The notes beneath the pieces are model-generated. The model was not told the DNA's origin, made no database searches, and was given only the letters and a program-made list of their open reading frames with translations. This document shows, one piece after another, positions 3,001 through 33,161 of a stretch of 36,683 bases of DNA. The stretch comes from a virus. Position 1 is the stretch's first letter. Every line of letters starts with the position of its first letter. The position numbers and the translations under genes were made by a program. The stretch covers positions 1-36,683 of IMG/VR virus record IMGVR_UViG_3300030333_003084; one strand, given 5' to 3'.

Positions 3001-6000
3001 CCCATCTGGGGTATCAAATAGTGTAGTGTTATAATTCCAATTATCTGCACTCTCCCTAGTGGTCTCTTCATGACGACCCTCTGCTGAAGAAGGGCTCACG
3101 GCTCCCTCTTCTAAGCGTCCTGTGGCTCCTTCTATGCTGGAACTACCATAAGTGACATGGTGTGTATGGGTATCATTCCTATTGATAGACCAAGTTGGCT
3201 CTGCAACTTGAGCCAGACCTGCAGGGTTGAGAAGATAATATGACTGGTGAGCGTAAGCACTCTCCACGAAAGATGAGCGGTTGCTGGTGTTTATCTGGCT
3301 CTTGAAACCAGCAGCGACGTCCAACCCATTTATCTCAGGGGTGGTTTGACTCGTTTGCACTTGCATATAGAGGTCATGGAAAGCAATGAACTCCTTGTCA
3401 TGCGCCACATCATAGAGAAGGACCCTCGCGTGGCCATCAGTATCCAAGTAAGGGTCTACATATGCTACTATAGGGGCACTCGCTGCTGAGTAACCTAACT
3501 GCTGCCAGTTCAAGGACACTGTTTTATTCACATGCTGAGCGAAATTCACCGCAGTTTCTCTACAAGTATCCCCAATCAGGAAGTTCTCTAGAGGTAGAGT
3601 ACTGTTGGCCTCAGTAGTGAGAGCCCCCTCCCCGCCATTGAAACCATTCCATACCTGGAATTGATTGAAGACGCCTCGTGACTTGCAGAAGAGGCCATCT
3701 ATCGCGTGGGGATTCGTGTAATGCATATTCATCCATACAGTATCACCATGCCGCAGTCCACCTGGGGCATAAGGGTAATTCCAAGTACGGTTCAACTGAT
3801 GTGTGGGTTGAGTGGTGTTACTCACTATCACTAATTCCTCCCCCAAGGCTGGAGGAGTCCCTTGCCCGCTTATCGTAATGGTATTAGCAGAAGTCCAATG
3901 ATTGTGAGTGAAAGTCCATGTGGTCCCATCCTTCACACGGATGGCCGTAAAAGTCGTAGTCGCATTCTTAGTTATGGGAATTGTGTCACTCTCTATATTT
4001 AGATTGTAATTGCCACTACCTAAGTTTGATACTGCTACGACCTTGAGCGATGCAGTTTTGGTTTGAATCTTCCGAGCGTGAGGGTTGGTGACTGGTCCAG
4101 CCTTGAACTCTACAGCGCTGACATGCTGTCGTAACCCGTAATCTATGTTCCCACCCTGAGTCTGAACATTACCCCTGTCGTAATAGAAGGGCCTACGGAA
4201 TTCACGTGCACTGGAGAGGGACCTGCTATCATCTCGCAACGGAGCACCAGTGAAATCAAAGAAGGGTGTCAACGAAAGGACAGTACCGCTTTCCAAGCCA
4301 TCGAAGAACCCACTGCTCTGCTCTTCAATCTCTATGTAGTCATTAGAATAATCCCCTATCTTGTAGATTAATGCCCACTCTCCGTTCGGGCGGAAGACCC
4401 GTCTGAACACAGGCATGCCACGCATGCCACGATACATCCTCTCACCAGACCAACCATCATCCGTATCCAAAGAACCTGAAGACGTGCTTGTTTCTAGGTC
4501 AGTGTTCTCAGGAAACCTGTCTGCTACGTCATCGACATACAAGCGTGACCTAGTGGAACGCTCGAAATTAGTCCAACCTACCCCCACACTACCTAGGAAA
4601 TTAGTGGTGCCTGTGGTTATTGCTCCGGGGTAGCGTGTGAGACTGAAACGGACATAATTGACGCCATGACCCCAGCCACGCACCTTAATCTTGGCATTCA
4701 CACTAGTAGGCCCTACTATGTTACTCACTAGATAGAAGTTCTTTCCAGACACCGTAGTAGGCCATGACTGGGTTGCTTCCATAGAACCATTATGACCGTT
4801 CTCGTGGTTTATGGCTGCTATCAATTGCGTGACGAAGACAGTGCTCCAAGTCGCATCACCAGGGTCAGTGAAGACGACCTTGACTCTATTCTGGTCATCC
4901 AAATCTCCTGTAGCCACCCCTGCGGCTGTCGCATAAGGGACGTATATCTTCTCTAGACCTGCAGCATCCACGATGTAAATCTCTGCATCACCGAACATGC
5001 TATTATCAGGCCAATCATCCGAGTCTGAATCGGACCCAGTATCAATAGTCACATGCATGTAAGACCGAGTGGGAGGGCTCACTTCCCCAAGTTTAACAGC
5101 CATTACAGACTTCCCATCTTGGAGTCTAGTATGGTAAGGGCCTTCGACGTCTCTATCAGCAGGATAATGGTCAGAAGGTCTACGACCAACAGGGTTAGGG
5201 GCCCAACTGTGGGCTGTCATGGTCGCATCCAGATGTAATTTCATGCTGTTGTCTGGCCCAGGGAAGATACCATTACTAGGGTCATTGAAGAACTGATTGG
5301 CAAAGACAGGTATCTCTACCATAGCACGAGTGCTAGAGTATTGTGTCCCCAATTGATAGTCATGGGAAACCCCACCCAGTTGCTGAAAGAGCCTATCATT
5401 CAAAGTGGTACCATCAGGGATAATACTGTCTTCAGTGAACTTACTGTCAACGATGATTGCATCTCCTTCTATTACACCCATGACTGTATTCCAAGCAGAG
5501 AAACTGTCATACTCCTTCCCATCGGCATCTACGAAACGCCCTGTCCCTAGATGCCCAGTACCAGCATGGAAGTAGAACTTGTTACTGTCTAACTTGTAAT
5601 ACTCCACACTTGCCCCACTAGGTAGGTAGAATCTACCACGTGGTGGGAAGGAAGCCGCGGGTTGTATCGAATCAGGTACGTTATTAATACCAGTCGAGTT
5701 GTTCAGCGGGAGGGTGTCCACATAGGTACTAGCCACAAGTCGGACCATCGTAGCCCCATCTCTCCTTGAAGACCAACCTAGTCGAGACAACGTGCTCTTA
5801 TCCCAAGTTGGTTGGGTCAAGACCGCCCCTTGTCCAGGCCCACCTAGAGTGACACTCACCACAGGTGCATCAGGACTAATCTCTTTCACTATAGTAGAGT
5901 CAGGTGCACCCTCTCCACTGTAGTTTGCCTCCATGGAGGCCACATCATCCATTAACCCTCTGACGCTCAAATCGACATAGTCGCCACTTTCATCTTCTAC

Positions 6001-8541: not shown

Positions 8542-8543
8542 AC

Positions 8544-9740
8544 TCAAATCCCCACTATCAAATCCAAAGGCATGAATGTCAGAGTGGCTGAATAGACAGT
8601 CTCCCCTGCAACATACTTGAAATCCATATCCACGAGAGTGCCTCTAATGCCAGTCTTGAACGCACCTTTCCCTGCAATCTCAAAAGGAGTGGCACTTGCA
8701 TCTTTGGTATTGGCATCTGCATCTTTAGCGAGATTCCTGAAACCTGTCCCATAGATGAAATTTCTAACGGAGTATTGATGTGGGCGTGTCTCATTGGTGG
8801 GACCATAGACATCAGTGATATTGTTGAAGGAGTTGTAAGGTATCTGAAGACCTACAATGTAATCGCTCTTCCACCCAGCAGCGTCTTCTTGTGCGAAGAA
8901 CTCCTCATCGAACTCCCAATCATCAGACCCTATACCACCGAAACCACCGAGAATGGAGTTATTGATGACAGTCGCTATTAGGTTCTGCAATTTATCACCT
9001 GCAGAATAACAGCCCTTGGCTTTGCCACCAGACATGGTTTCTATCCTTGGCATCACAGTATCACCATTATCGCCAGCAGAAGGGGTAGCATCCATCCTAT
9101 CACCCATGGGTCCTCGCTTGTTGGCTTGAGTGAACTTCAGCAGGCTCTGCTCGCCAGACACATCCCGGCGTCCAGTAGCCACTGTAGGTGTGAAAAATGT
9201 AGTAATGTCCGATTCAGCCGCTACAGCCTCCTTTATCTTCTGAGCGAGGTAGGCTCCTTTATCTGCGGCTGCTATCCCTGATGAGGTATCATCATCCATC
9301 GACACAGTGAGAATCCTATCACTTGCATTCCATGAATTAGAGCCAGTCGCTACCAACTTGATTGTTAGGGCCCAACCTGATGTGGTATTATTATTACCAA
9401 TTACGATGAAAGTAGCCCCATCCAAATTAGCACGAGTGACGAGGTCTGAGCCATCATCGACATCACCATCCATGTAACGCCCATCCCCATTGTCACTGAA
9501 ATCAATGAAACCAGAAGCATAATTCAATTGGAAATCAGAGTCCTTGCAATCATCATCCCTGAGTATGACATTCATTCTGAAAACAGCATTTACCAGATTC
9601 AAGTCAGTGGCTAGCCTCTCCCCTAGAATGGGTAAGGGTGTGGCTACTATAGCCCGCTTGATAGACCCGTCAAAATCGGTAGCCTCCAAATCTATGGTCT
9701 CACCATCACGCCTGACTAAGCGTATTGGTATCCCTGGCAT
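8544..9740 (-). CDS. Distal tail / tail-tip-like structural protein
   Basis: A 398-residue protein directly after the tape measure gene, with its ATG overlapping the tape measure stop (TAATG). No family is recognised by motif. The position between tape measure and fibre is that of the distal tail (Dit) or tail hub protein of siphoviruses, so that role is inferred from order alone. The N-terminus (PIRLVRRDGETIDLEATDFDG) is a compact beta-rich start plausible for a Dit-like tube domain. Residues about 105-220 form a separate Asp/Ser/Thr-rich module with the pattern YLAQKIKEAV followed by a variable stretch and a Gly-rich strand. A similar pattern occurs in the neck protein at 15105-16712 and in the fibre. 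The C-terminal part (VDMDFKYVAGETVYSATLTF) looks like strands that close a beta domain. No membrane segment or signal peptide is seen. Confidence 0.7.
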   Translation of the reverse strand: MPGIPIRLVRRDGETIDLEATDFDGSIKRAIVATPLPILGERLATDLNLVNAVFRMNVILRDDDCKDSDFQLNYASGFIDFSDNGDGRYMDGDVDDGSDLVTRANLDGATFIVIGNNNTTSGWALTIKLVATGSNSWNASDRILTVSMDDDTSSGIAAADKGAYLAQKIKEAVAAESDITTFFTPTVATGRRDVSGEQSLLKFTQANKRGPMGDRMDATPSAGDNGDTVMPRIETMSGGKAKGCYSAGDKLQNLIATVINNSILGGFGGIGSDDWEFDEEFFAQEDAAGWKSDYIVGLQIPYNSFNNITDVYGPTNETRPHQYSVRNFIYGTGFRNLAKDADANTKDASATPFEIAGKGAFKTGIRGTLVDMDFKYVAGETVYSATLTFMPLDLIVGI

Positions 9741-18557: not shown

Positions 18558-19697
18558 TCACTTCAGGTCTCGGATTGAACCTCCTGCACCGAAGAAAGAA
18601 TCCCACACCTCACCCATGGTTCGGTAGAGTCCTTCCTGTCCTAGTCTGTTGATAGCGAACGGGTCACCAGTCTCGATACCAGACTCGAAATACTGAGTCG
18701 GGATAGCGGTCTGGAACCATAGGTAGTCCGTATCAAAGTAGTAAATCCTCGAAATACCGTCAGTCACTACGTCCTTGGATGGAATCAGGGGCACACCGTT
18801 GTAGGTAGCCACGATGAATCCAGCCTCGATACCTGGTACACCCTTTACACCGTTGTAGGTTGGGGTGACCCTCTTCGACTCCATGAACCTCTGCTGGCTC
18901 TGTAGGAGTTGCTGGACACGCATTAGGGTATCGTACCCTGTCAGCATGACCTTGGGGTTACCACCACGCTTCCAAATCTGCTGGAAGAGTCCGTCAAGAT
19001 GGTTCAGGCTCAGGCTTCTGTTTGCACTTGCTGCGTCTACGTCAACCTCTGCAGACTTCCATGCATCGTCAGAGTCACGTCGCTGGATAGAGTAGACATC
19101 GCAGTCTCCTGCTGCAGTCAAGTGGTTCGAGCCAACCGTCATCTTGTCAGGGTCTGATGTTAGCCTGTCTAGAGACTCTAGGTCGTTACCGGCTGCAGTG
19201 CCTACATCCTTCAGTAGCATCTGATTGATGTGGTCAGCGTGGTGCTTCCCCATCTCTTCCTTGAGCACTTGGCGCACGTCACCTAGACCGTCATCCTTAT
19301 CGGAAAGGAACATGGACACTTCGCTCAGGTCGAAGGCGTGTCCAATGGTCTTGGGCTTGGAAGCCACGTGTAGGAAGGAAGGCTTGGTTGTGTCTGGCAG
19401 TGTAGCGTTCTCAGCCAGACCACCACCGACATTGAACGAAGGCTTGTCGGTGATGATTCTCCACCCACTTCGCTCCCAAGGCTTCTTTGGTAGAAGGCTA
19501 AACGCGTTGAACTCTTGGTTCAGTTGCGACCAGACCTTTCGTCCGTAGATTGCTTGGTAGGTACCAGCCGTAGTGCTCATTAGAGGAGCATCGGCCTTTA
19601 GGATGTCACCACTGCTGTACGTGTATCCGGTTAGAGCAGTGCCACCGTAGTAGTATCGCTCCATGTCCTGGATTGTCCTTACGTAATTACGTGCCAT
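18558..19697 (-). CDS. HK97-fold major capsid protein
   Basis: 379 residues. It overlaps the protease stop as TGATG and has a strong GAGGTGAC ribosome site ending five bases before the ATG. The N-terminal arm region (NAFSLLPKKPWERSGWRI) leads into a helix-rich P domain (VRQVLKEEMGKHHADHINQM) and an A domain with KVMLTGYDTLMRVQQLLQSQ, the loop GVKGVPGIEAGFIVATYNGV, and the strand ISRIYYFDTDYLWFQT. This order, and the pairing with an HK97-type protease/scaffold upstream, support the HK97 fold. There is no long N-terminal scaffold (delta) domain, consistent with the scaffold being fused to the protease. The nearest relatives cannot be named without a search. Confidence 0.88.
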   Translation of the reverse strand: MARNYVRTIQDMERYYYGGTALTGYTYSSGDILKADAPLMSTTAGTYQAIYGRKVWSQLNQEFNAFSLLPKKPWERSGWRIITDKPSFNVGGGLAENATLPDTTKPSFLHVASKPKTIGHAFDLSEVSMFLSDKDDGLGDVRQVLKEEMGKHHADHINQMLLKDVGTAAGNDLESLDRLTSDPDKMTVGSNHLTAAGDCDVYSIQRRDSDDAWKSAEVDVDAASANRSLSLNHLDGLFQQIWKRGGNPKVMLTGYDTLMRVQQLLQSQQRFMESKRVTPTYNGVKGVPGIEAGFIVATYNGVPLIPSKDVVTDGISRIYYFDTDYLWFQTAIPTQYFESGIETGDPFAINRLGQEGLYRTMGEVWDSFFGAGGSIRDLK

Positions 19698-21106
19698 CAG
19701 TTGTCACCTCTTAGTGCGCTGCCGGCTAGTCTGTGAACATCGTCCCAGGACATCTCGGCCATTTCCATAGTCTCGGGCACAACCACGTTGGTCTCGGGTG
19801 CGCTCTTGGTTATGGTCTCTCCGGTCTCTGGGGTAGCCATGTTGTCAAACCTGTCAGCGAGAGATAGAACTGCTTTCTGTAGGTCAGCGAGAGGGCCTCT
19901 TGCGTCAAATTCGTCGCGGGCCTGCTCGTTCTCTGCTGCAGTCATCTCCTTCTGGAATCTCATAGAGAACTCGTTACCAAGGTCAGTCTTGAACCTCTGC
20001 TCGAGAGCAGCGGCCTTGTAGACCTGGTATGCTTCCTCTATCTGAGTCGGGGTTACCGCCTCAGGGCTGATGTAGTCATCTGCTTTGATGACGACCTTGT
20101 TCCCAGTAGCACCGGGTCCAAAGTTCATCTTTGGTCTCTTACCAGAATCATCTTCACCAGCACCCTCGATGCTTCCCTGGCCACGGTGGTCGTAGCCATG
20201 AGCACCTTCCTGTAGGTAAGCCTTCTCGACTCCCTCAGGGGTCTCAAGAGCGCCTCTTGCTGCCTCAGGGTCGTACCCTGCAGACTTCACGGTGCTCTCT
20301 AGCCAATTCAGATAGTCCGTGGTAATCACGTCCTCCAAATCAGATTTCTCGACATCAGCAGATTTCTCATGCTTTCCATCGTCTTCGTCTTTCATTTTTG
20401 CTTTCTCGGTGCTTTCAGCCTTCTCCTTCTTCTCGTCTTCGCTCTTCTCGGCTGCTTCGGCTGCTTTCAGTGCAGCCTCATTCGCCTCGTCAGCGTCATC
20501 GAGTCGCTTGGAGAGACGCTCTAGCACGTTCTGCAACTCATTCATTGTTTCACTTTCAGTTTCAGTCATTTTATCACCTTTATTTGTTGTAGTATCCTCC
20601 TTTAGGATTCTGAACTGGGCCTCGGGATTGATGCCCTTCTCGCAAATGGTCACCTCATGCAACTCCATGCGGCTTATCTCACGATAGTCACCTCTGGTGC
20701 CATCGTGCTTATTGACACGCTCGAAAGCCTGTCCACCGATGGAGAACGACTTTAGGTTCCCCTTGCGAATTTCTGCTGCCACTTCTCGGGCCTTCTCAAT
20801 GTCATCTCGTAGTTTGATGACGACAAACATGCCAGTCTCATCTACCTCTGACTTCCACATCCTACCAGATGTATCTTCGTACTGGGGGATAACCTCCCCT
20901 ACTTGTATATTGGAGTGGGCTAGTTGGACGTTCCTGAAACCAGGAGATTTCATGAACTTGCCGAAGGCATCCTTCAAAGCATTCTTGGTAATCAAGTCTC
21001 CTTGCTTGTCCACCATCTCGACTGAGGCATAGCCCGCAACGACCAAATCACTAGACCTGGATTTCAGGAGAATTGGGTCCTCTACAGGAGCCTCCATCAT
21101 GAGCAT
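19697..21106 (-). CDS. Prohead protease fused to a scaffold domain (HK97 S78/U35-like)
   Basis: 469 residues. Residues 1-165 are the protease: VVAGYASVEMVDKQGDLI, His64 in QLAHS, Ser122 in LKSFSIGG, and the acidic strand MELHEVTICEKGINPEA that supplies the third catalytic position. This is the herpes/HK97 assemblin-type serine protease that trims scaffold and capsid inside the prohead. Residues about 185-260 are a highly charged Lys/Glu/Ala coiled coil, followed by a polar C-terminal region: a scaffold domain carried on the same chain. Several ATGs start the gene (residues 1, 3, 4). There is no good ribosome site, but a TATA-like box lies about 24 bases upstream, so the message may be leaderless from ATG 21106. 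The next gene is the capsid protein, with a 3-base stop/start overlap. Confidence 0.88.
   Translation of the reverse strand: MLMMEAPVEDPILLKSRSSDLVVAGYASVEMVDKQGDLITKNALKDAFGKFMKSPGFRNVQLAHSNIQVGEVIPQYEDTSGRMWKSEVDETGMFVVIKLRDDIEKAREVAAEIRKGNLKSFSIGGQAFERVNKHDGTRGDYREISRMELHEVTICEKGINPEAQFRILKEDTTTNKGDKMTETESETMNELQNVLERLSKRLDDADEANEAALKAAEAAEKSEDEKKEKAESTEKAKMKDEDDGKHEKSADVEKSDLEDVITTDYLNWLESTVKSAGYDPEAARGALETPEGVEKAYLQEGAHGYDHRGQGSIEGAGEDDSGKRPKMNFGPGATGNKVVIKADDYISPEAVTPTQIEEAYQVYKAAALEQRFKTDLGNEFSMRFQKEMTAAENEQARDEFDARGPLADLQKAVLSLADRFDNMATPETGETITKSAPETNVVVPETMEMAEMSWDDVHRLAGSALRGDN
19703..19710 (-). promoter_or_regulatory. Strong ribosome binding site of the capsid gene
   Basis: GAGGTGAC on the minus strand, inside the end of the protease gene and close to the TGATG stop/start overlap at 19699-19695. 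It is one of the best matches to the 3' end of 16S rRNA in the window, fitting a highly expressed gene. Confidence 0.7.
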
Positions 21107-21141: not shown

Positions 21142-24100
21142 CTACCCTGAAATGGGGATTTTTACGTGTTTATCATCTCTTTCTTGCGGGGGAGGAGAAA
21201 ACTTCGGGCAGTCTTCCATCTTAGTCGCAAGACCCTGCTCACACTCCTGCCCAATTTGTGCCCCGCACCAACAAACACCGTCCTTTTCTTGCCGATGCCC
21301 AGGGTCATGGTCAGGGAGATTCTTGGGTTCTGTCAGGGTAGTCGGTCCAGAAGGTGACTCGACAGGGGTAGCGAAGTCTATCCCCAACCCCTTAGGTCCA
21401 GTGAAAGTGATTTTCTCCTTGAGTAGACCTTCTACCATCTCCAATGCCGTTACCACTTGCTTTGTGAGTACTGGGTCTTTGAGGATTCTCTCCTTTGGCT
21501 TGAGTACCTTCTTGGGTTTCACCTCCTCATGATTAGCAGGCGGCTCTGGTACCACTGCAGCCTTGCGACTCTTCTTCGCTTCTATGTCTGCACGAAGCAA
21601 AACTGCTGCTAGAGGGTGCCAGTATTCTTCCTGGGTCTCAGCAAGTTGTCTCAGGTAATCACTAGGACTATCCACGGATTTGACAATGAAACCGTGGCCA
21701 TGCACTTCTGTGTCATAGATGACATGGCCATGGGGAAACTCAAGATGTATGGCTGTCTTCTTGATACGGACATGGTGAGGCACGTTCATGTTATGCTCCC
21801 CAGACAGTATCTCTAGAGTTTCTATGCTATCAGTACCCGCAGACTCAGCGTCCTTTACATATCGAGCACCTGTTAGTTTGTAGACTTTGAAACCCCCTCT
21901 GTTCAAACTGGTGACCTTAGGAGTCCTGACAGTGATGTAATCACCTTTCTCTAAACCCTTCCTAGTGATATAACCCACATCCATGTAGTAATCACCGTCA
22001 TAGGATGCCGCCCTATTGCCTAGCGAAGACGCATCGTCGTCCATCAACGGGCCGATACCCATGAGATGCTTGTCATTCTCACTATCCACAATACGGACAT
22101 CTAACTGCTTTTGAGGTGTGAGCATTACCCATTTCGGGTGTCTGCTCTCCCCACGCATATAAGTGGATTCAGCATCTCTTAGCATGACTTGTTTCACACC
22201 TTTCTCCTTGAGTAAGTCTTTCACAGCGCGCTCCAACCCTTCGCTATCCACCCTCTTGGTATTGAACGGGGCAGGAATAGACACCTCTTCGGTCGCAGAA
22301 AACTCTGCTCGTAGGTGCCTGATTCTATCTTTGGTGGGCATGTTCTCCATCTTCTCATCACCACAATGCACGATATCCACAAAGAAGACATTCTCCCCAT
22401 CCCATATTGCATCCACGATGAAATTAGCCTTGTGAGCAGCACGTATGCCTTCTTGGACCTTCTTAGGTAAGATGACAGAATCATGCGCTTGGTTGTAGCA
22501 AGTCAAGCGAGTTTTCTTTTTGTCAATTATCACTCGCTCCCCTGAAGCCCATGATGAAACCACCCAATCCTCTGAGAATCCTCGCAGGTGCGATAAATCA
22601 CCAACAGTGAAAATACGATGCATGGCTTTGACAGGGATAGGCCTGCCTTTGTTTGAGTCGTCCCCTTTGTAAAGCAAGTCAATATCAGTTAGGACATCCA
22701 GTGATTTGATGGTGTCCATGTCTGCCGTATTGGGGTCTATATCTTGAGGGTTCCCCTCTTCTCTATAATCTAACTGAGCACCATCAACTACAGAGGCACT
22801 ACCAATATGGTTGATAGTATCAGGGTGGAGACGCATGAATGAAATCTCTCTTTCCTTAGGGGAACGCACGGTGTCCCCCATCTTCCCCTCTCCTGTGATT
22901 TCCTGCCACTCTTCATCTCCGCCTCCCCACGATGGGTGGATTGAGACACCTCCTTTACCACCAAGAAGGCGCAAGAGAGAGCCATCCTGGAAAACCCCAG
23001 GCATTTTCATATGTCGATATGGTACACCCTCACTATACCCGATTTTTCGCTTGCTATGTTGCCCACTGTCATAATCATAAGTATGCCCTAGAGGGAGAGA
23101 GCGACTTTCTGATGTCAAGAAACTACTCAACCTGTCAATGCCTCCCCTATCTTCATCAGTGAGAATGTGGTGAGCCTCAGGGAAAGCGGGCTTGCCAAAC
23201 TTAGTTTTACTAGTAGCAATCAAAGATGAGAGAATGTTCCAGATACTAATGCCATCCGACCCCCTCTGGAATAAAAACTGCAGAGTATCCTGGAAGGTTT
23301 GAGGGTCGGAATCTCGCAAAGACAGCAAATGTCCCTTCAGGGATTGAGATTGTCGCGCTCTAGCGGCACGGCGCTGGGCTAGTATGAGTTTGTTCCCCCG
23401 TCGTCCTTTCGCATCACGTGCCTCCATAGCCTGCCTTGAGGCCTCTTCTTCTGAGAGAGCCACACCATGCCAGTGCAAGGGGTCGCTCTTTGTCCCTTTC
23501 GCGTAATGCGTTGCTGCTACAATGTCTTTCACGCAACTAGCATAACTCTGTGTGGGGTCTACCTCGGGCTCACCGAACAGACCCATGACATTGTTTCCTG
23601 TGATTTTCTCAACCGCCTCCTCGGGTGTCATACCGAAACTCTCGAGGATTTTCTCAACTCTTGGCTCATTCTCAAGGACGTGGGTGAGGAACTCCAACCC
23701 TGTAAAATTCCCCTGGAGTTTCTTGGCACTGACAAGTTCACGTAGAATATTCTCCTCTGGCTCTATCGGCCCAAACAAAGTCCTATGAGGATATTCCAAC
23801 TCTGTCTCTGAAAGAATTCTATCAGAATTGTCCAGTGCCGTCTCTATCTCTGGCATACGCTCTTCGAGATAATTACGGACACGGCGCCTGAACCCTCCTT
23901 CATAAGAACTCGTGGGGTTGTTAATGTATTTCACGGCATGATTGATTAGCATCTGCTGGCGAGAGCGAACTGCATCAGTCTCACTGGGGGATTTATCCAC
24001 GACATGTTTTGACCCGGCCTCGTAGTGCCTATTGTTGAGTGTGAGTTTGTTTTCTACATAACGCTGTACTGCTTCAGCAGGCCCCAGAGGTAGCCCGTCA

Positions 24101-27100
24101 TCACCCAAATACTCGTCAGGTTTGCGTTCAGCATCTCCTAAACCATGGAACCAAGCCATGATACCAAAGGCTGTGGGGAGTTTGCTCATGAGTTCATGCA
24201 CTTGCTTGTTCATGAAAGAGAGGGATTCCAGAGTGAGATTGTGATTCTTGGCATCCCTAGTCTCATTAGCGTCACCCATGTCCCCTTGGGGGTAATCCTT
24301 CTCCGCCCTGTCTTTAGCCCCATTAAGGAAAAGATGGGAGGCAGATGTCAAATCAGGTGTGTGGGGTAACTTGGATAGGACCAAATCAGTGAAGTCAGCA
24401 GCAAGACGACTAGGGTGAGGCCCAAGCATTGCAAGAGTCCCGTCCTCTTGTTGGAAAACACAAGCGGTGGGGATTTCCAACATCGGTGAAGAAGTCAATT
24501 GGCGAGCACGTACTTCTGATTTGGTGCGCCCTTCAGAATCCGTTTGGTCATCATCGGCATGAAGGTCCCTATACCTATAACCTTCCATTCCACCTGCTGG
24601 TTTGAGAGGGTTGATTAGATTGCTAAAGTCTGTTATGGGTTGCCCGTTGACATTCTTGAGCATATTCTGTCTTATCTTCTCTAACCCTTGCTCGATAGGT
24701 CGAGCATCATCCCCCTTTGTGTAGTCAGGGACATATACATTAGAATGCTCCATTTGCTGCAATTGTAAGTAGTATTTACCATTCTCGAACAAAACAGGAT
24801 AGGAGTGCGGCTTCAAATCTACACGGTCCACCCAAGGCATCTCTGCCTCCCCGCCCTTTTCCCTTCCTAGTATGGTCTGCCATACTTCCCTAGCATCGGT
24901 ACTGAAGACAGGGGACTTGAATGACTTCCACTCCTTTGGTAGTGGAAAGCCCCCCTTTATGCTCCTCAGCATCTGGTCAAACACCTCAGGGTGTTCCCAT
25001 ACAGGTTTCCCTGCGTATGCTCCCTTGTTGGCAGGGAAACGTAAAGGAGGTGCTTCCCCTAGACCTAGAAGCATAGCATGTATCTTCGCTTGGACGTCTC
25101 TTGTGCGCAAGCGACTCGTAGGACTGCGTTCGATATGCTGGAAACCCCTAGCGAAACTGGAGTCTCGGGTTTTATTCCTGCTGTCGACATCACTAGTACC
25201 TCTAGACAGACGGGCAGATGGGGTTCCGACCAAATGCCGTGCTGTGATATGCATCGTGGTTTCCCCTGGGAAGAGTGTCTCCACATTCCCGATAGGCACA
25301 GTGTCAGAGCCAATGCCACTAGTCAAAGAGAAATGCCTTGCGAGGCGGTAGTTCTTGAGATAGACATCCAAAGCGTGGAGATGTTGGTCAGTACCGTCAC
25401 TCCCTTCAGGGAACTGGTGACGTCTTGGTAATTTGGCCCTTTCTCGGGCTCTGAAGTCCCCATCCATCTGCATGTTGAGAGGCAAGTCATGCAACAGACG
25501 AATGATTCGATTGGGGTTCATGTAAGCGAGATTCGCCAAGGACAGAGGAGGTGAATGAGGGATTCTCCCCAGTGGTGCGCTTGAGGTATCTCCTAAACGA
25601 CCATGTCGTAACCACCCCCCTTCGGATTCCGACCATAGTGGCCTGCCTGCTTCGTCTGTGGGGATTGAAGTATAGGGGGTAATCTCACCAGGGAAAGCCT
25701 GCATCATAGCCGCGTGGTACAACTGCGCCATGCGCAGGAAACCTGGTACATCCAATGACGTGGATACCTCTTTCACATGGTCAGTGTTTGCACTTTCTTG
25801 CAAGGTTTGCTCTTTCATCTGTTCTTCGGACAATTCAGGAGAGTCAGCATCATGCTTTATCATCCTCGCATAGTTAAGCAGTAGTTTTTGCAACTCAGGG
25901 TAAAGACCACGCTTGTCATCCCTAATCGCTTCTAAGGTACTGCCCTGCTCTAATAGCCTACTTATCTCAGGTGCGAGGACATTGCCGAAGAGAGCAGTCA
26001 GGTTATCCATAGAGCGGTTGGCTTTGACTTTCTCTCTGAGCGCTAACCAGTTTCGGTACTTACGTGAAGTGACATCCACATTAGGGGCCGGTGGTATGGT
26101 GAATTGAGGGAGTTCCTCCTGGTCAGCAATCTCATTTGCTGTATTCCGAATAGGCCTGCCCTTGTGTGTGCGACGGGCTAGTAAGGTATTCTGGGCATCA
26201 TTCTCAGTCATACCCAGACCACCATTTCTCTGGAACCACCCAAGAATGTAACCATACAGCCCTTCTTTGGGGTTCGCCCCTATAGTAGAGTCATGGTCGG
26301 GGGCTAACTGTGGTTCCAAAATGTATAGTTCAGGGGCGGATTTGAATTTGTAATCATCCCTCCTGTCATAGAAGGCTGCAGAATTATCACCATGTCCTAG
26401 ATGGTCTGCCCCTAACCAGACTTCAGCCCTCCTTACTTCAGTGGGAGTCAGTACTCCACGCCGAGCCCACTCTTGGAGGGCTTCTATGCGCTTATGGATA
26501 CTAGAGTAATCACCTTTGGGTAACCCAGCCTCAAAGTCCCAGTTTTCCCTATAGGTATCAAAGAGTTTGTTGCGTATGGTATCAGCACCAGCCTCTGCTG
26601 CTTTGGAAGTCCCTTTCGGGTCACGTCGAATGTAGATAGTCTTGCCACCCCTGCAGCCTTCTACATGGCCACCCCCTATTTTCTTGCACTTGCTACAAAC
26701 AGAAGTGAAGTCCTCTGGCAAGTCTTTGGAGATGAAATTGCTAATGCAACGACTCATGGTATATGTCCCATAATTTGCACGAGTAGGTAGTATCTGCACC
26801 TGTCGGTGGTGGTTCGATATGTCTGGTGGTGCTGTCCAAGCCATCTGTATAGCCCGATTCATAATGTTGAGTCTTCTCTGTTGCATACGATAAAGTTCTT
26901 CGGCGGTGAATCCCTTACCCTGGACATGATGATGGCGCTCCCTAGGGCGGAGGTTAGAATCCCCGTCCTCGAAAAAGCGCTCCTCAGATTCCTCAGGTAC
27001 GTAATCAGGGTCTTGCAGACGGTAGGTCTCGTCATCTACCTTTCTGAAATAAGCCTTGTAAGCAATGAGTCTCTCTTCGTTGTTGGGCTTCCTAGGGTCA

Positions 27101-28344
27101 GAATCCAAGAAGTGCAAACCATGCTCCAGCACCTCTTCTGAAATCGCTTGGTCTCTGTTCCGTACCCCTTGGAACTCAGGGCTTTCTACAATATCACGAG
27201 GGTCTGTCCCTGACAGGCTCCCGTCTTCGTTGTAGAACTTCTCCATGATATATGGCTCTGGTGCCCCAGAATCCCTGAGGAACTTATGCTGCCAGAATAT
27301 CTCCCTGCGTGCTTGCCCCTCCGCCCTTCCTTCTCCACTATGAGGGCCATCGGGAAATGTCTCCTGATACCACTCCTCCCATTGCCTAAAGCCACGTTCA
27401 TACAATCTAGACATCCCATGTTCCACTATCCTCCCCAGAACATCTTCGCCAGCCCTGCCTAGTTCTACTTGATAGTGCTCCCAAGCCTCAGGGCTGTGTG
27501 CTCTCATTTCAGCCTCGGTCATACCCCCAAGCGCTGTTTCTCGAATGGCATCTTCGTGTGCCATATGGAGAGGCTCTGTCTTACGCACGAAGGAAGGTTT
27601 GTAGATGCTCATTTCGGATTCATAGAGATGCCATAAGAATGAGGTCTCTTCTTCTGCCGTCTCACAGTGCTCAGGGAACATATTCAACCATTCATGCTCA
27701 TCTTCTTCCTTTAGTTCCCTGCCAGTCTTACGAATTCTCGGTGCCCTCACTGCTCGAGCGTGGCCAGAGAGGAGGAGTCTCAGGAGTTCATCAACATCTT
27801 CGCTCTCGGTTCCTAGACGGAAAACACCAGTGTCACGAAGTTCTTGTTCTATGTTCTCAACGATGTCTCTTAGATATGAAGGTGGTACAGCCCCTGCCCA
27901 TTTGCTCCTTTCTATGCAATCAATGATAGAAGTGCTAATGGTGTCCCTCGTGGGGCTGGTATCAGCGAGCCACGAAGGTTTGTCCCTTTCACGATAGAGA
28001 GTGACCCCCTTTTGTTGCTCACCTCTATCATCACGCACACGCATCAAGCGACTTCTCCATGCATCCTTCTCGTCGTCTTGTGGTTCTTCTCCCACCAATT
28101 TGAATTTAGGGTCAGGCTTCTTAGTTTCCTCAGCCGCCTCTGCTTCTTCTCGCAAATCCTGCTTGACGCCTTTCTCCTTCAGTAGGACATCCATCTTCTG
28201 GAGCGTGTCATCCCACTCGAACTCGACACCATGATGAATTAAGTTACGAGACGCGAAGAACAGTTCAGCAGCATCTTCGATATCTTCAGATTTCTGAAAA
28301 CGGGCCTTGGCGCTCAGAAAGAAATCTTGGGGGGATTCACGCAC
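21142..28344 (-). CDS. 2400-residue giant head-region protein with dead ligase-like domain
   Basis: It lies between the small post-portal genes and the protease. The GTG start at 28344 has GAGGTGG seven bases upstream. The N-terminal 1900 residues are mostly polar, charged and helical; I recognise only a zinc knuckle-like Cys set at 533-564 (VCSKCKK, later GCRGG). Residues about 1924-2200 resemble an ATP-dependent DNA ligase nucleotidyltransferase core followed by an OB-fold (see the separate entry), with catalytic residues replaced. The end (CWCGAQ, Cys2368, Cys2379) forms a second possible zinc site. There is no signal peptide or membrane segment. Giant genes at this position may be internal virion proteins ejected with DNA, or large assembly factors; both are inference. 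A 9-residue sequence LLKEKGVKQ occurs both near the N-terminus (54-62) and within the ligase-like part. Confidence 0.9.
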   Translation of the reverse strand: MRESPQDFFLSAKARFQKSEDIEDAAELFFASRNLIHHGVEFEWDDTLQKMDVLLKEKGVKQDLREEAEAAEETKKPDPKFKLVGEEPQDDEKDAWRSRLMRVRDDRGEQQKGVTLYRERDKPSWLADTSPTRDTISTSIIDCIERSKWAGAVPPSYLRDIVENIEQELRDTGVFRLGTESEDVDELLRLLLSGHARAVRAPRIRKTGRELKEEDEHEWLNMFPEHCETAEEETSFLWHLYESEMSIYKPSFVRKTEPLHMAHEDAIRETALGGMTEAEMRAHSPEAWEHYQVELGRAGEDVLGRIVEHGMSRLYERGFRQWEEWYQETFPDGPHSGEGRAEGQARREIFWQHKFLRDSGAPEPYIMEKFYNEDGSLSGTDPRDIVESPEFQGVRNRDQAISEEVLEHGLHFLDSDPRKPNNEERLIAYKAYFRKVDDETYRLQDPDYVPEESEERFFEDGDSNLRPRERHHHVQGKGFTAEELYRMQQRRLNIMNRAIQMAWTAPPDISNHHRQVQILPTRANYGTYTMSRCISNFISKDLPEDFTSVCSKCKKIGGGHVEGCRGGKTIYIRRDPKGTSKAAEAGADTIRNKLFDTYRENWDFEAGLPKGDYSSIHKRIEALQEWARRGVLTPTEVRRAEVWLGADHLGHGDNSAAFYDRRDDYKFKSAPELYILEPQLAPDHDSTIGANPKEGLYGYILGWFQRNGGLGMTENDAQNTLLARRTHKGRPIRNTANEIADQEELPQFTIPPAPNVDVTSRKYRNWLALREKVKANRSMDNLTALFGNVLAPEISRLLEQGSTLEAIRDDKRGLYPELQKLLLNYARMIKHDADSPELSEEQMKEQTLQESANTDHVKEVSTSLDVPGFLRMAQLYHAAMMQAFPGEITPYTSIPTDEAGRPLWSESEGGWLRHGRLGDTSSAPLGRIPHSPPLSLANLAYMNPNRIIRLLHDLPLNMQMDGDFRARERAKLPRRHQFPEGSDGTDQHLHALDVYLKNYRLARHFSLTSGIGSDTVPIGNVETLFPGETTMHITARHLVGTPSARLSRGTSDVDSRNKTRDSSFARGFQHIERSPTSRLRTRDVQAKIHAMLLGLGEAPPLRFPANKGAYAGKPVWEHPEVFDQMLRSIKGGFPLPKEWKSFKSPVFSTDAREVWQTILGREKGGEAEMPWVDRVDLKPHSYPVLFENGKYYLQLQQMEHSNVYVPDYTKGDDARPIEQGLEKIRQNMLKNVNGQPITDFSNLINPLKPAGGMEGYRYRDLHADDDQTDSEGRTKSEVRARQLTSSPMLEIPTACVFQQEDGTLAMLGPHPSRLAADFTDLVLSKLPHTPDLTSASHLFLNGAKDRAEKDYPQGDMGDANETRDAKNHNLTLESLSFMNKQVHELMSKLPTAFGIMAWFHGLGDAERKPDEYLGDDGLPLGPAEAVQRYVENKLTLNNRHYEAGSKHVVDKSPSETDAVRSRQQMLINHAVKYINNPTSSYEGGFRRRVRNYLEERMPEIETALDNSDRILSETELEYPHRTLFGPIEPEENILRELVSAKKLQGNFTGLEFLTHVLENEPRVEKILESFGMTPEEAVEKITGNNVMGLFGEPEVDPTQSYASCVKDIVAATHYAKGTKSDPLHWHGVALSEEEASRQAMEARDAKGRRGNKLILAQRRAARARQSQSLKGHLLSLRDSDPQTFQDTLQFLFQRGSDGISIWNILSSLIATSKTKFGKPAFPEAHHILTDEDRGGIDRLSSFLTSESRSLPLGHTYDYDSGQHSKRKIGYSEGVPYRHMKMPGVFQDGSLLRLLGGKGGVSIHPSWGGGDEEWQEITGEGKMGDTVRSPKEREISFMRLHPDTINHIGSASVVDGAQLDYREEGNPQDIDPNTADMDTIKSLDVLTDIDLLYKGDDSNKGRPIPVKAMHRIFTVGDLSHLRGFSEDWVVSSWASGERVIIDKKKTRLTCYNQAHDSVILPKKVQEGIRAAHKANFIVDAIWDGENVFFVDIVHCGDEKMENMPTKDRIRHLRAEFSATEEVSIPAPFNTKRVDSEGLERAVKDLLKEKGVKQVMLRDAESTYMRGESRHPKWVMLTPQKQLDVRIVDSENDKHLMGIGPLMDDDASSLGNRAASYDGDYYMDVGYITRKGLEKGDYITVRTPKVTSLNRGGFKVYKLTGARYVKDAESAGTDSIETLEILSGEHNMNVPHHVRIKKTAIHLEFPHGHVIYDTEVHGHGFIVKSVDSPSDYLRQLAETQEEYWHPLAAVLLRADIEAKKSRKAAVVPEPPANHEEVKPKKVLKPKERILKDPVLTKQVVTALEMVEGLLKEKITFTGPKGLGIDFATPVESPSGPTTLTEPKNLPDHDPGHRQEKDGVCWCGAQIGQECEQGLATKMEDCPKFSPPPQERDDKHVKIPISG
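21740..22600 (-). other. Pseudo-DNA-ligase (nucleotidyltransferase plus OB) domain, residues about 1915-2200
   Basis: Against ATP-dependent ligase motifs: motif I K-x-D-G-x-R appears as SSWASGERVIID (WxSGER; the nucleotidyl-acceptor Lys and the Asp are gone). Motif III/IIIa appears as NFIVDAIWDGENVFFVDIVH, where spacing aligns DAI with DGE. Motif IV (EGxxxK) appears as KQVMLRDAESTYMRGES. Motif V (KWxKxK) appears as KWVMLTPQKQLDVRIV. The downstream MDVGYITRKGLEKGDYITVR matches the OB-fold start. The order, spacing and surrounding hydrophobic residues are ligase-like while each catalytic residue is replaced. This is by-eye alignment, so the fold call is probable, not proven. Confidence 0.6.
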
Positions 28345-29294: not shown

Positions 29295-29686
29295 CACTCC
29301 ACCTTCTGACCGAATCCATACTGTGGTTGCCAATTGGACTGAATTCCATCAGGGCCGATATAACCCATAGGCCTGTCTCCCTTGATAAGAGAGCCTTGGT
29401 CTTTGAAAGACATGACAGGGACACCACCTGCAAATGTCTCGTTGACACCTATAGGCTTGTTTCCTTCAACATCTGACTTGTATATCGCAGTGACATCCGA
29501 AGCGAGGTAATCACTGGTTTGGGCTATGGACCTCAGGAATTGCTGAGCCCCCACTAAGTCATTGTTCTGCAAGGCGGTCTTGAACTCACCCACGGCTGTT
29601 TCTAGTTTCCTAACCATGGGGTCGAGTTTGATAATCGTGTCCGTCATGACGCTCCGCACCCCATACATCCTCATTAAACTATTCAT
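29294..29686 (-). CDS. Small protein after the portal, unknown
   Basis: 130 residues. The ATG overlaps the portal stop (ATGA). The first part is helical (MVRKLETAVGEFKTALQNND, then QQFLRSIAQTSDYLASDV), then a polar Gly/Pro-rich end (GDRPMGYIGPDGIQSNWQPQ). There is no recognised domain, membrane segment or signal. It is one of three small genes between the portal and the 2400-residue gene, so it is probably a head component or assembly factor (inference). Confidence 0.72.
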   Translation of the reverse strand: MNSLMRMYGVRSVMTDTIIKLDPMVRKLETAVGEFKTALQNNDLVGAQQFLRSIAQTSDYLASDVTAIYKSDVEGNKPIGVNETFAGGVPVMSFKDQGSLIKGDRPMGYIGPDGIQSNWQPQYGFGQKVE

Positions 29687-31692
29687 TGCTTAAAGTTACT
29701 TTTCTTCTTCTTACTACCAAGCGGGTCAGCGGCTTGGTCTTTAGCATCTTGAATAGCATCGTGGGCTTCTTGGATAGGTGTTTTCTTCCTATTGGCGTTT
29801 ATTTTGGGTACAGGAGCGCCGTCAGATGCCGTCTCATGTTTGACTGGGGCTATCTTCTTGGGAGTGTTCCTACGTATGCCCACGCTCTCAGACCCGGAGC
29901 CCATCCCTTGGCTCTTTTCTACATCCTCTGACTTTCTGGTCGGTACTGGGCGATTGCCGAAACGATGAGTCATACCTGTGAGCCTCTCATTGATTCTCGC
30001 TCGGTCTAAACCGATGTTAGTTCCGGGGAGGTTCTTAGGAGGGAGAGGGGGTTGTTGTTGGCCGCCCGGTAGTGGAGCACCTGGGGGTGCTGCTCCGGGA
30101 GCCATACTTTGTGGTAGAGGGCCAGGGCCTCCAGGTGGGACCATCATTGGGCCAGGGCCCATCGGTCCGCCAGGCATGGGTCCACCCGGTGGAGGAGCCC
30201 CTTCGGGGCCACCTCCGGGGGGCGGCTGACCCTGCATGGCTTGCATCTGCGCTTGCTGTGCCATTTCTGCTTCATCCGGCTTTTTGTAGAAGAAGCGGAT
30301 ATCCCTACCTGCGTCTTCAGTCAATTGTGGTTGGAAGCCCAATTGCTGCATACGTTGCGCAATATTGACTTCCATCTCATCTCTACGTAGACGGGTGACA
30401 TCGTCTTCCTCCTCGTTCGGATAGAGAGTCATCTCCCAATCCTCCACACCCATAGCAGAGAAAAGACGAGGGAATACATCGCGGCCCCATAGTTTCTGCC
30501 CAGATTCTACAGCCCTGTTAGTGACGAGAATCTGCATGCCCTCGTTATTGAGACCTCCTCCTTTTCCACTATCCATCATGAAGACATTGGAAACCCCATA
30601 AAATGCAGCGATGCGCATGCGCAACTCATCACGCACAGCACCATATTGCATCTCATCCAAGGTATCCATGAACCTGACAAACTCAACACGACCTCTTCCT
30701 GTGGCAGACTCGATGCCCACCTTGGGGATGTAATGGGGGTCTCTCTCCATCTTCTCCTCAGCACCCTTCCAGAAAGACGCTGTCGATTGGATGTTGTCAG
30801 TGGTGATGGCCAAGACACCTCGAGGCATCCTCCTCTTCTGATAGGACAGATACATGAAATTGTCCATAGCGGAGAGAGTCATGGCTTGTCTCCACAGAGT
30901 AGCGACCGGGCTTCTACCATACAGTTTGGAGGGGTTGAACTTGCTGAAGTGGATTATCTCCCCTTCTATGTAATACTGAGTCTTCCCCGAACCTGCGGTA
31001 TTGATGAAATGAACGTCTTGCAAGGCCTTGTTACACACTTCACAATTCTTGTAATCCCCACCGAAGGGGTAAGTCTTGTCACGATGGACTGGGCAGACGA
31101 GATAACGTCCACCTCGAACTCCTCTCTTGTCTGACACGATTCTGATGAAGGTAGGGTCACCTCGGAGTATCTCTTTGACACGATAAAGGGAGATGTCATT
31201 ATTGTCAGGCTCTAGGTAGTAATCTTTGATGAGCACCATGAATGCGTCATCTACTATGTCTAAATCCCACTCTAGTTCTCTGAGGACATCCATGAATGAC
31301 TGGTCCATGCTGTTGCGTTGTTTGACGAACCACTTGGGATAGAGTATCTGGTCAGGGTTGGGGGTATCCATCTCTGTGCCACCACACACATCACATTCCT
31401 TCACTTCGTGCTTGTACTCTTCCTGACAACTCTGGCACTTCATCTGGAATTTCTTCTGCCAGTAGAAACCACGGCGAAATATCTCTTGACAAAGGGTGTT
31501 AATGGTGGTTCGTAGAATGATGCTCTCTTGCACAGTAGCATAGAGGGCAGGGATACTGACACCTTGTACCAGAACAGGCTCTTGTACCCCGGATTTCCAT
31601 AATGGCATTATAGGCTCAGGAGTCGTTTTAGTGCGGAAACGAGAACTGATGGCATCAATGAAACGACCGACTGGACCTTTCTCTTCGACCAT
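29683..31692 (-). CDS. Portal protein with zinc-ribbon insertions
   Basis: 669 residues from ATG 31692, which overlaps the previous TGA (TGATG) after GGTGAT. The portal is the dodecameric DNA gate. The early part holds SIPALYATVQESIILRTTIN, the stem region has YIEGEIIHFSKFNPSKLYGR followed by SPVATLWRQAMTLSAMDNF, and later FYGVSNVFMMDSGKGGG: the order of phage portal proteins. Two Cys pair sets are inserted: Cys87, Cys90, Cys101, Cys104 and Cys201, His204, Cys218, Cys221, each plausible as a zinc site. The residues after about 490 are a Pro/Gly-rich linker (PPPGGGPEGAPPPGGPMPGG) followed by a Lys-rich tail. The wing/stem positions of the zinc sites suggest they stabilise the outer domain; this is inference. 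Confidence 0.85.
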   Translation of the reverse strand: MVEEKGPVGRFIDAISSRFRTKTTPEPIMPLWKSGVQEPVLVQGVSIPALYATVQESIILRTTINTLCQEIFRRGFYWQKKFQMKCQSCQEEYKHEVKECDVCGGTEMDTPNPDQILYPKWFVKQRNSMDQSFMDVLRELEWDLDIVDDAFMVLIKDYYLEPDNNDISLYRVKEILRGDPTFIRIVSDKRGVRGGRYLVCPVHRDKTYPFGGDYKNCEVCNKALQDVHFINTAGSGKTQYYIEGEIIHFSKFNPSKLYGRSPVATLWRQAMTLSAMDNFMYLSYQKRRMPRGVLAITTDNIQSTASFWKGAEEKMERDPHYIPKVGIESATGRGRVEFVRFMDTLDEMQYGAVRDELRMRIAAFYGVSNVFMMDSGKGGGLNNEGMQILVTNRAVESGQKLWGRDVFPRLFSAMGVEDWEMTLYPNEEEDDVTRLRRDEMEVNIAQRMQQLGFQPQLTEDAGRDIRFFYKKPDEAEMAQQAQMQAMQGQPPPGGGPEGAPPPGGPMPGGPMGPGPMMVPPGGPGPLPQSMAPGAAPPGAPLPGGQQQPPLPPKNLPGTNIGLDRARINERLTGMTHRFGNRPVPTRKSEDVEKSQGMGSGSESVGIRRNTPKKIAPVKHETASDGAPVPKINANRKKTPIQEAHDAIQDAKDQAADPLGSKKKKSNFKQ

Positions 31693-33161
31693 CAAATATC
31701 ACCTATCAACATGCTCGCATCATCAACCAAGCGTATGACCTCAGGGTCCTGCCTGGCCCACGAGAGGACTTCTCCTTCATCAACATTCCACTCTGCGAGC
31801 AACTCATCGCTCTTAACATCCTTCCAATTCTCCCACTTGACTAGACGGTACAATTGCTCTCTGCGTTTATTGATGAGGTCATTGTCTCTCCCTCTCAGGT
31901 TAAGATGCTGCAATACGTAGTTCGCTTGCTCTTTCTTCATCCTCAGATGGGGCAGAACCCCTTTGAGTAACTTGTTCAAGTCCGCCTTGCTGTAGAACTG
32001 TAGACGGTGCTGGCTACGCTTACTGGACTCGCCTATCTTCAAATCCAGACTGAGCACACCACAATCTAATATCTTGTGCATGTTCTCACAATGAATCTTG
32101 CCTCTGTCCCCAGTGGCGATAATACCAGCCCTAGGCTCCCCGCGCTTGGAGATGGTGATATATCCATCTGCATCCAAGAAGCCAGCAGCATAGGCCCATG
32201 GATTCTTGAGGATGACATCCGTGTCGGTAGAGAGTGACTCCCATGACCCTTTGTTCTTGATGATATCGAATTCCGGCCCATATACCTTGAGAAGCGCACC
32301 TAACTGTTGCACGGAAGGGACACCACGGCTGCGCCCGTCAGTGTTAGTCATATGACTATGGAGGCTGCGACTATCCATAGGCCCCTCTGTGTCCAACAAC
32401 TCTTTCGACTTATGCAAGAACATAGCATCTCTCTTCGTAAGTTGCTCTGACTGATGTAAGGTGTGGCGCCACATCTTCTTCGCCTCTTTCTTCAGGTTGT
32501 TGGCATCTACCCACAAGCGTTGTTGCTCTTCGTTCAAGTCATCAATACTAGCCAGTTTGGTTAGCATTTTATCAGCCCTCTCCCATTGCATGCAACTCTG
32601 TCGCAAGGAGACTTCTCGATTCTCACCGAAGCGTGAGAGGGCCTTGAGGTCCCTGTCACTCAAACCTAGTGATTTGATTGTCATTAGATGCTCTCCTCCC
32701 CAAGATAGTTTCTTCAGGGTATTGTCCACTTCCATCTCTTTCGTCATGCGTATCATCTTAATCGCATCATCAATGTCCTCACGGTATTGTTTGTGGTCTC
32801 GCCTCTTCATGCGCAAGTCCTTTACTATCTCATTGGGGGTCTTCCCGAACACGTTCTCGAACCACCCATGGGATATATCACCAGCCAAGACCATCCCTTC
32901 CATTTCCTTTTTGCGTCTCTCTTCTTCCTTGGGGTCCTTGGCTGGAGGTTGAGTCGGTTGTAATTTACCACTGCCCTTATCAGGGGTAGGTGGGTTCTCA
33001 GCGAATTTAGGTGTGGATATAGAGCCAGATTTGAACAAGGGGTGTTGTGCGAGTTGACGTATCACCCAATTGCGGTCAGAGTCCTCTTCATCTGACTTAG
33101 CGTCGTAATCATCACCAATTATCTGAGAAGCCCACACCACATTTACCGACCGCCTAATCAA
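31692..33161 (-). CDS. Coiled-coil protein with C-terminal LAGLIDADG domain
   Basis: 489 residues, starting with TTG at 33161 overlapping the upstream TGA (TTGA); no ATG is available nearby. Residues 1-260 are charged helices. Residues 272-307 (GVPSVQQLGALLKVYGPEF) are a small helical module. Residues about 320-425 are a LAGLIDADG homing endonuclease domain: AYAAGFLDADGYITIS with the acidic Asp332 retained, GDRGKIHCENMHKILDCGVL, and GVLPHLRMKKEQANYVLQHL. There is one motif, so the domain would act as a dimer if it were an enzyme. I see no intein or intron ends. The next gene is the portal and the gene before it is unknown. Confidence 0.78.
   Translation of the reverse strand: MIRRSVNVVWASQIIGDDYDAKSDEEDSDRNWVIRQLAQHPLFKSGSISTPKFAENPPTPDKGSGKLQPTQPPAKDPKEEERRKKEMEGMVLAGDISHGWFENVFGKTPNEIVKDLRMKRRDHKQYREDIDDAIKMIRMTKEMEVDNTLKKLSWGGEHLMTIKSLGLSDRDLKALSRFGENREVSLRQSCMQWERADKMLTKLASIDDLNEEQQRLWVDANNLKKEAKKMWRHTLHQSEQLTKRDAMFLHKSKELLDTEGPMDSRSLHSHMTNTDGRSRGVPSVQQLGALLKVYGPEFDIIKNKGSWESLSTDTDVILKNPWAYAAGFLDADGYITISKRGEPRAGIIATGDRGKIHCENMHKILDCGVLSLDLKIGESSKRSQHRLQFYSKADLNKLLKGVLPHLRMKKEQANYVLQHLNLRGRDNDLINKRREQLYRLVKWENWKDVKSDELLAEWNVDEGEVLSWARQDPEVIRLVDDASMLIGDI
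31887..32204 (-). other. LAGLIDADG homing-endonuclease-type domain, residues 320-425
   Basis: A single LAGLIDADG helix (GFLDADG), the DxGxI strand region and the typical LPHLRMKKEQA helix. It is fused at the C-terminus of a packaging-side protein, not a free-standing endonuclease gene; activity is unknown. A 64-residue C-terminal extension follows. Confidence 0.8.

What the first reader, a model, noticed from the sequence alone, without database searches (positions are those of the whole stretch)
21740..22600. Catalytically dead DNA ligase-like module inside a 2400-residue virion-region protein
The region reads through the ATP-dependent ligase motif series (I, III/IIIa, IV, V) plus an OB-fold in order, but motif I has Trp-Ala-Ser in place of Lys-x-Asp, motif IV has Lys-Gln in place of Glu-Gly, and motif V has lost its lysines (KWVMLT). 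The DGE at WDGE is too close to the FFVDI strand to be motif III; spacing aligns DAI there. A non-catalytic ligase fold fused to a giant protein between portal and protease genes is unexpected. It could be a DNA-end or nick-binding element placed inside the capsid. The fold is inferred by eye.
Basis: partly seen in the sequence, partly recalled or inferred. Interest (0 to 1): 0.85.

Follow-up and report, generated by a model that had tools for sequence, protein, structure and literature searches.

The report
Dead DNA-ligase domain in magrovirus protein
Viruses of abundant ocean archaea carry, inside a giant protein encoded beside their capsid genes, a DNA-ligase domain that has lost every residue needed for joining DNA yet is the best-conserved part of that protein, so the 'DNA ligase' reported for these viruses is probably, at least in part, a non-enzyme doing another job.

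Summary
Residues 1904-2166 of the 2400-aa protein (nt 22635-21847, minus strand) are an ATP-dependent DNA-ligase nucleotidyltransferase (NTase) domain plus OB-fold. Evidence: AlphaFold pLDDT 86.7; the 50 best PDB fold matches are all ATP-dependent DNA ligases (best E 1e-13); a family profile hits Thermococcus ligase at E 9e-6; 19 of 43 related contigs pass Pfam's ligase cut-off. It is catalytically dead throughout the family. In 171 distinct sequences the adenylated lysine is never Lys (W124/Y28/F12/I2/L1, 4 gaps). The motif III Glu, motif IV Lys and motif V lysines are also lost. Intermediates reading KWYDGKR fix the register. The domain is under purifying selection (dN/dS about 0.04-0.11) and evolves far more slowly than the 1300-1900 residues before it. 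The gene always lies between portal (84/84) and prohead protease (118/118). The contigs are magroviruses (Poseidoniales viruses) by gene content. No intact ATP- or NAD-dependent ligase was found in them. Published reports give magroviruses an 'ATP-dependent DNA ligase', and one places it beside the prohead protease, which fits this dead module. Function is inferred: a non-catalytic binding or assembly domain of a portal-adjacent, probably virion, protein. DNA-nick binding is untested.

The parts
21142..28344 (-). giant protein gene, 2400 aa, GTG start
   Evidence: relatives are 1800-2577 aa
22705..28344 (-). N-terminal 1880 residues, fast-evolving, no recognised domain
   Evidence: no Pfam/PHROG/PDB match; mean column conservation mostly 0.1-0.3 vs 0.5-0.7 in the module; acidic
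22105..22635 (-). dead nucleotidyltransferase (adenylation) domain of ATP-dependent DNA ligase type
22534..22557 (-). motif I, SSWASGER: Trp in place of the adenylated Lys, Ser in place of Asp, Gly and Arg kept
22405..22416 (-). motif III position VDAI: Glu replaced by Ile
22372..22386 (-). motif IIIa FFVDI: Asp invariant, adenine-stacking aromatic position is Val/Ile
22174..22194 (-). motif IV KQVMLRD: Glu-Gly lost, Lys to Arg
22117..22161 (-). motif V region YMRGESRHPKWVMLT: Trp kept, both lysines lost; family-specific GExRHPKW signature
21847..22104 (-). OB-fold
   Evidence: predicted strands and Foldseek alignments spanning about 350 columns of full-length ligases; hhalign register continues into the OB-fold
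21601..21825 (-). additional small beta domain after the OB-fold, conserved in the family
   Evidence: secondary structure of model; alignment
21340..21420 (-). conserved C-terminal segment KEKITFTGPKGLGIDFATPVESPSGPT
   Evidence: conservation profile
19697..21106 (-). prohead protease (S78), immediately downstream in 118 of 118 relatives
29683..31695 (-). portal protein, upstream in 84 of 84 relatives

Best explanation
The module is a true homologue of the adenylation (NTase) plus OB-fold core of ATP-dependent DNA ligases that lost catalysis before this virus family diversified. It was kept as a non-catalytic domain in the C-terminal part of a giant, portal-adjacent protein of magroviruses (tailed viruses of marine Poseidoniales archaea). 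Shown: fold, homology, loss of all ATP-handling residues in all relatives sampled, purifying selection, fixed synteny with portal, protease and capsid genes. Inferred: the protein is a head or virion protein; an aromatic side chain (Trp/Tyr/Phe) fills the place of the adenylated lysine, so the former ATP pocket is plugged or turned to another ligand, and the NTase-OB pair serves as a rigid binding or docking module in head assembly, genome packaging or ejection. The conserved C-terminal part would be the constant anchor and the fast-changing N-terminal 1300-1900 residues the lineage-specific part. Within this, binding to a protein partner (portal or capsid) or to DNA near the portal are both open; I slightly favour a protein-docking role. 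The 'ATP-dependent DNA ligase' credited to magroviruses in the literature is then, at least in group A, this non-enzyme.
For: Fold: AlphaFold pLDDT 86.7, pTM 0.73; the 50 best PDB matches all ATP-dependent DNA ligases, E from 1.2e-13; best named viral matches are DNA ligases, mRNA capping enzymes also in the list. Sequence homology independent of structure: profile vs 4eq5 E 8.8e-6 with SKWYDGER aligned on EIKYDGAR and the motif IV/V stretch in register; 8 of 25 plus 11 of 18 related contigs over Pfam PF01068's curated cut-off; hhalign to phage ligases E 6e-5; NCBIfam ligase models also hit the same stretch. Dead: 171 distinct sequences, position of catalytic Lys W124/Y28/F12/I2/L1/gap 4, zero Lys; motif III Glu I133/V31/L3/T1; motif IV Lys R165/K4; motif V L/V/M and R/T/S. 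Maintained: dN/dS 0.04-0.11 where dS is measurable, dN about 2-7 times lower than in the N-terminal part; module is the best conserved part of the protein. Context: portal upstream 84/84, prohead protease directly downstream 118/118, MCP next. Magrovirus identity: 79-118 kb contigs with PolB in 16 of 17, AAA/RFC-like ATPase, ERCC4 nuclease, TCP-1 chaperonin, TFIIB. No intact ligase: PF01068, PF04675 and PF01653 find none, while the same search finds the HGTV-1 ligase at 1.2e-27. Literature: PMC7318539 describes a group A magrovirus stretch encoding part of an 'ATP-dependent DNA ligase' and the prohead protease.
Against: No experiment and no proteomics show that the protein is in virions. The functional step (docking or binding) has no direct evidence; the N-terminal part has no recognisable domain; the module's mean net charge is -11. 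Motif IV keeps a Glu at the aligned position in 23 and a Lys in 4 of 171 sequences, so degeneration differs among sites. dS is saturated in several pairs. Equating the published 'DNA ligase' with this module rests on gene position in one paper, not on the accession itself, which is not in the collections.
Confidence: 0.8

Rival explanations
1. One reading: the dead ligase core still clamps DNA nicks or ends and holds the packaged genome's terminus near the portal inside the capsid.
For: The fold is that of a DNA-encircling enzyme core; motif I Arg is kept in 141 of 171 sequences; the gene sits next to portal and terminase genes.
Against: Net charge of the module is negative on average; the N-terminal DNA-binding domain of cellular ligases (PF04675) is not found in these contigs; no invariant basic patch was demonstrated.
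Confidence: 0.25
2. The pocket was converted to bind another nucleotide or cap-like ligand by aromatic stacking, as in the m3G-cap-binding domain of snurportin-1, itself a non-catalytic NTase-fold domain.
For: Aromatic residue at the lysine position in 164 of the 167 sequences that cover it; sub-threshold Pfam matches to the snurportin cap-binding domain in 14 of 41 members; capping enzymes among fold matches.
Against: Pfam matches are weak and expected from shared fold; no cap-like nucleotide is known in archaeal viruses (general knowledge); other pocket positions are aliphatic (III I/V, IIIa I/V).
Confidence: 0.12
3. It is an active ligase with a displaced nucleophile, for example the Lys one residue before the usual position in SKWYDG relatives.
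For: Many relatives have a Lys next to the position (SKWYDGKR).
Against: The window and many others have S, L, A or I there; spacing K-x-x-DG does not fit K-x-DG; motif III Glu and motif V lysines are lost as well.
Confidence: 0.03
4. The resemblance is chance or a decaying pseudogene segment.
For: Weak single-sequence Pfam score for the window (19.4 bits, cut-off 26.2).
Against: Structure, profile matches over cut-off in relatives, purifying selection and family-wide conservation.
Confidence: 0.01

Closest known systems
ATP-dependent DNA ligase, archaeal/LIG1 type (Pfam PF01068 DNA_ligase_A_M; PDB 4eq5, 2cfm, 3rr5, 3l2p)
   Same: NTase plus OB-fold order, motif order, Gly and mostly Arg of motif I, Asp of IIIa, the R..L helix, SxYxxG..R..W around motif V
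   Different: adenylated Lys, motif III Glu, motif IV Glu-Gly-Lys and motif V lysines replaced; no PF04675 DNA-binding domain found; fused in a 1800-2577-aa protein in a capsid gene cluster
Snurportin-1 m3G-cap-binding domain (Pfam PF21974)
   Same: non-catalytic domain with NTase fold and a binding rather than enzymatic role (from general knowledge); sub-threshold profile similarity
   Different: eukaryotic nuclear import factor; better matches here are to DNA ligases, and an OB-fold is present
'ATP-dependent DNA ligase' annotated in magroviruses (PMC12999244, PMC10768690, PMC10160649, PMC7318539)
   Same: same virus group; in PMC7318539 the annotated gene lies beside the prohead protease, as the giant protein does
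   Different: the papers count it as part of the replication machinery; here it is inactive by residue content and lies in the structural cluster. Identity with the ICTV example genomes was not checked (records not held)
Virion internal/ejection proteins of tailed phages (P22 gp7/16/20, giant phage ejection proteins)
   Same: a working analogy: large, fast-evolving protein coded near the portal
   Different: no sequence relation tested or found; virion location unproven here

Membership tests
ATP-dependent DNA ligase (fold family, PF01068) | nucleotidyltransferase fold followed by OB-fold | tested here: met
ATP-dependent DNA ligase (fold family, PF01068) | score over the curated Pfam cut-off | tested here: inconclusive
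   window itself below (19.4 vs 26.2 bits); 19 of 43 related contigs above
ATP-dependent DNA ligase (active enzyme) | motif I lysine (KxDGxR) | tested here: not met
   0 Lys in 171 distinct sequences
ATP-dependent DNA ligase (active enzyme) | motif III Glu and motif V lysines | tested here: not met
ATP-dependent DNA ligase (active enzyme) | ligation or auto-adenylation activity | not testable with these tools
   needs protein
ATP-dependent DNA ligase (LIG1/archaeal type) | N-terminal DNA-binding domain PF04675 | tested here: not met
   no match in 23 related contigs
Magroviruses (order Magrovirales) | about 90-118 kb tailed-virus genome with PolB, primase, clamp loader, chaperonin, ERCC4 nuclease | tested here: met
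   related contigs, e.g. G007 (118 kb; portal 81%, MCP 90% identical to the window); clamp loader inferred from an AAA ATPase match, primase match weak. The window itself is a 36.7 kb fragment of the structural region
Virion or internal head protein | present in purified virions | not testable with these tools
   no cultured virus; only gene position

The most novel reading that the evidence does not exclude
Magroviruses gave up ligase activity: the ligase fold survives in two non-catalytic forms, one as a capsid-cluster module of a giant protein and one as a degenerate stand-alone protein beside the clamp-loader gene. The widely stated self-sufficient magrovirus replisome would then lack a ligase and depend on the host's, while the virion uses a dead ligase core as a portal-proximal DNA- or protein-binding device.
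Probability: 0.3. Interest if true: 0.85.

Novelty: new variant of a known kind. Interest (0 to 1): 0.68.

Why it matters
Magroviruses infect some of the most abundant archaea of the surface ocean, and published genome descriptions credit them with an ATP-dependent DNA ligase as part of an almost complete replication apparatus. If the only Pfam-recognisable ligase is a dead domain in a capsid-cluster giant protein, that statement needs correction and dependence on the host ligase becomes a testable prediction. It would also be a clear case of a replication enzyme core recruited to a non-catalytic, probably virion, role and then fixed across a large virus group.

Tried and rejected
Looked for homologues in the phage record collection (none) and in 84,980 cellular genomes (none). 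Looked for domains in the N-terminal 1300-1880 residues with Pfam, PHROGs and PDB profiles: nothing. First structure run with 14 close sequences was poor (pLDDT 68); a 41-sequence alignment solved it. Considered the WDGE as motif III and rejected it, since the profile alignments put the following strand on IIIa. Considered a displaced nucleophile lysine (SKW) and rejected it. Considered pseudogene decay and rejected it on dN/dS. The MgtC_SapB_C and CI-repressor matches are sub-threshold and were discarded. Records OR863078 and ON649702 (published magroviruses) and two key papers (PMC5434244, PMC11706807) were not held. A full-length conservation run with the slow alignment method timed out and was redone with a faster one.

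Full report
Observation. The minus-strand ORF 28344-21142 encodes 2400 residues. It lies between a portal gene and its small neighbours on one side and an S78 prohead protease and SU10/HK97-type capsid gene on the other. The window's module alone scores just below the curated Pfam cut-off for DNA_ligase_A_M (19.4 vs 26.2 bits, E 9e-4), so it would be missed by routine annotation.

Homology and fold. IMG/VR holds several hundred relatives (219, 435, 223 and 415 confirmed stretches in four scans, with overlap). With 41 of them AlphaFold gave a confident model (pLDDT 86.7, pTM 0.73). Foldseek returned ATP-dependent DNA ligases from human LIG1/LIG3/LIG4, archaea and mycobacterial LigD, E from 1.2e-13, and viral DNA ligases and capping enzymes. 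TM-scores are modest (0.4-0.5) over the whole length and the rmsd is large, as expected when NTase and OB domains are oriented differently. Sequence evidence is independent: the profile of 29 divergent members finds Thermococcus ligase 4eq5 at E 8.8e-6, hhalign against seven phage ligases gives E 6e-5 in the right register, and 19 of 43 related contigs pass Pfam's cut-off.

Catalytic residues. The HMMER alignments put SKWYDGER on EIKYDGAR, so the aromatic residue replaces the adenylated lysine and the D, G and R of KxDGxR survive in many relatives. Over 171 distinct sequences from 358 loci the position is W124, Y28, F12, I2, L1 and 4 gaps, never K. The motif III Glu is I/V/L/T; the adenine-stacking position of IIIa is mostly I/V/L; motif IV Lys is Arg in 165; motif V first lysine is L/V/M and the second R/T/S/D. 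The patterns used to find the loci come from the motif IV/V stretch and other conserved stretches, not from the motif I lysine itself, so absence of the lysine is not a search artefact; but a version with intact motif V could have been missed. An aromatic side chain in 164 of the 167 sequences that cover the position points to a kept role, not to simple decay.

Selection and architecture. The module is by far the best conserved part of the protein. dN/dS in the module is 0.04-0.11 where dS can be estimated, and dN is about 2-7 times lower than in the N-terminal part of the same pairs. Relatives are 1800-2577 aa with the module always in the C-terminal part. A conserved tail (KEKITFTGPKGLGIDFATPVESPSGPT) follows. 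In 118 of 118 loci with room the protease follows immediately; in 84 of 84 the portal precedes.

Which viruses. A 118-kb relative with 90% identical MCP and 81% identical portal (G007), and a 110-kb one (G005), together carry PolB, an RFC-like AAA ATPase, ERCC4 nuclease, TCP-1 chaperonin, a TFIIB and a primase-like protein. That is the published gene content of magroviruses (PMC12999244, PMC10768690, PMC10160649, PMC5332604). Their hosts, Poseidoniales, are taken from those papers.

Consequence for the literature. Those papers (except PMC5332604) list an ATP-dependent DNA ligase or DNA ligase among magrovirus replication proteins. In 43 related contigs the only convincing PF01068 match is this module (plus one weak 0.006 match in the stand-alone protein below), and NAD-dependent ligase is absent from the 17 tested. 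The positive control, HGTV-1, gives 1.2e-27. [quoted passage not shown] in G007 the giant protein gene ends just before the protease gene. I infer that the published ligase is this module at least in group A. I could not open the records to prove it.

Function. What is shown is a dead, selected, positionally fixed ligase core. What follows by inference is a non-catalytic binding or docking role in a portal-adjacent, probably virion, protein. DNA-nick or end binding remains possible but has no positive support: the module is on average acidic. I put a protein-docking or general assembly role slightly ahead of it.

In passing, the replication modules of several of these contigs hold a second, still more degenerate protein of 434-519 aa beside the clamp loader, with hhalign similarity to the dead module (E 1.5e-4) but not convincingly to active ligases (E 0.02). 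If confirmed, magroviruses hold two non-catalytic ligase-fold proteins and no active one.

Noticed in passing
L183:14275-15654 (-); L210:14962-16350 (-); L219:1273-2829 (+); L221:541-1980 (-); L216:1321-2622 (+): A stand-alone 434-519 aa protein in the replication module, next to the RFC-like gene (seen in G005 and G007), looks like a second degenerate ligase (e.g. motif I read as VIREQDGVR, Glu for Lys, in L219). hhalign to the dead module E 1.5e-4, to active ligases only 0.02.
   Followed up: partly
window 1-8547 (-): An ORF of at least 2849 aa runs off the window end; in relatives the equivalent place holds a 5100-5980 aa protein after the tail genes. No PHROG match.
   Followed up: no
window 31692-33161 (-): 489-aa protein between the terminase-side genes and portal with an HNH endonuclease match in its C-terminal part (PHROG 5046, E 2.6e-9).
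   Followed up: no
window 21199-21273 (-): Cysteine-rich stretch CWCGAQIGQEC...EDC at the C-terminus of the giant protein, possibly zinc-binding; a second CxxC stretch lies near residues 533-564.
   Followed up: no
BFVD A0A516LT18 (fold match of window 22704-21601): Best viral fold match (E 1.2e-24, 20% identity, 827 aa) has no name in the tables; possibly a deposited fragment of a related virus.
   Followed up: no
window 22705-28344 (-): The N-terminal 1880 residues evolve very fast (16-27% identity to relatives whose modules are 48-63% identical), while MCP and portal are mostly 55-90% identical.
   Followed up: partly
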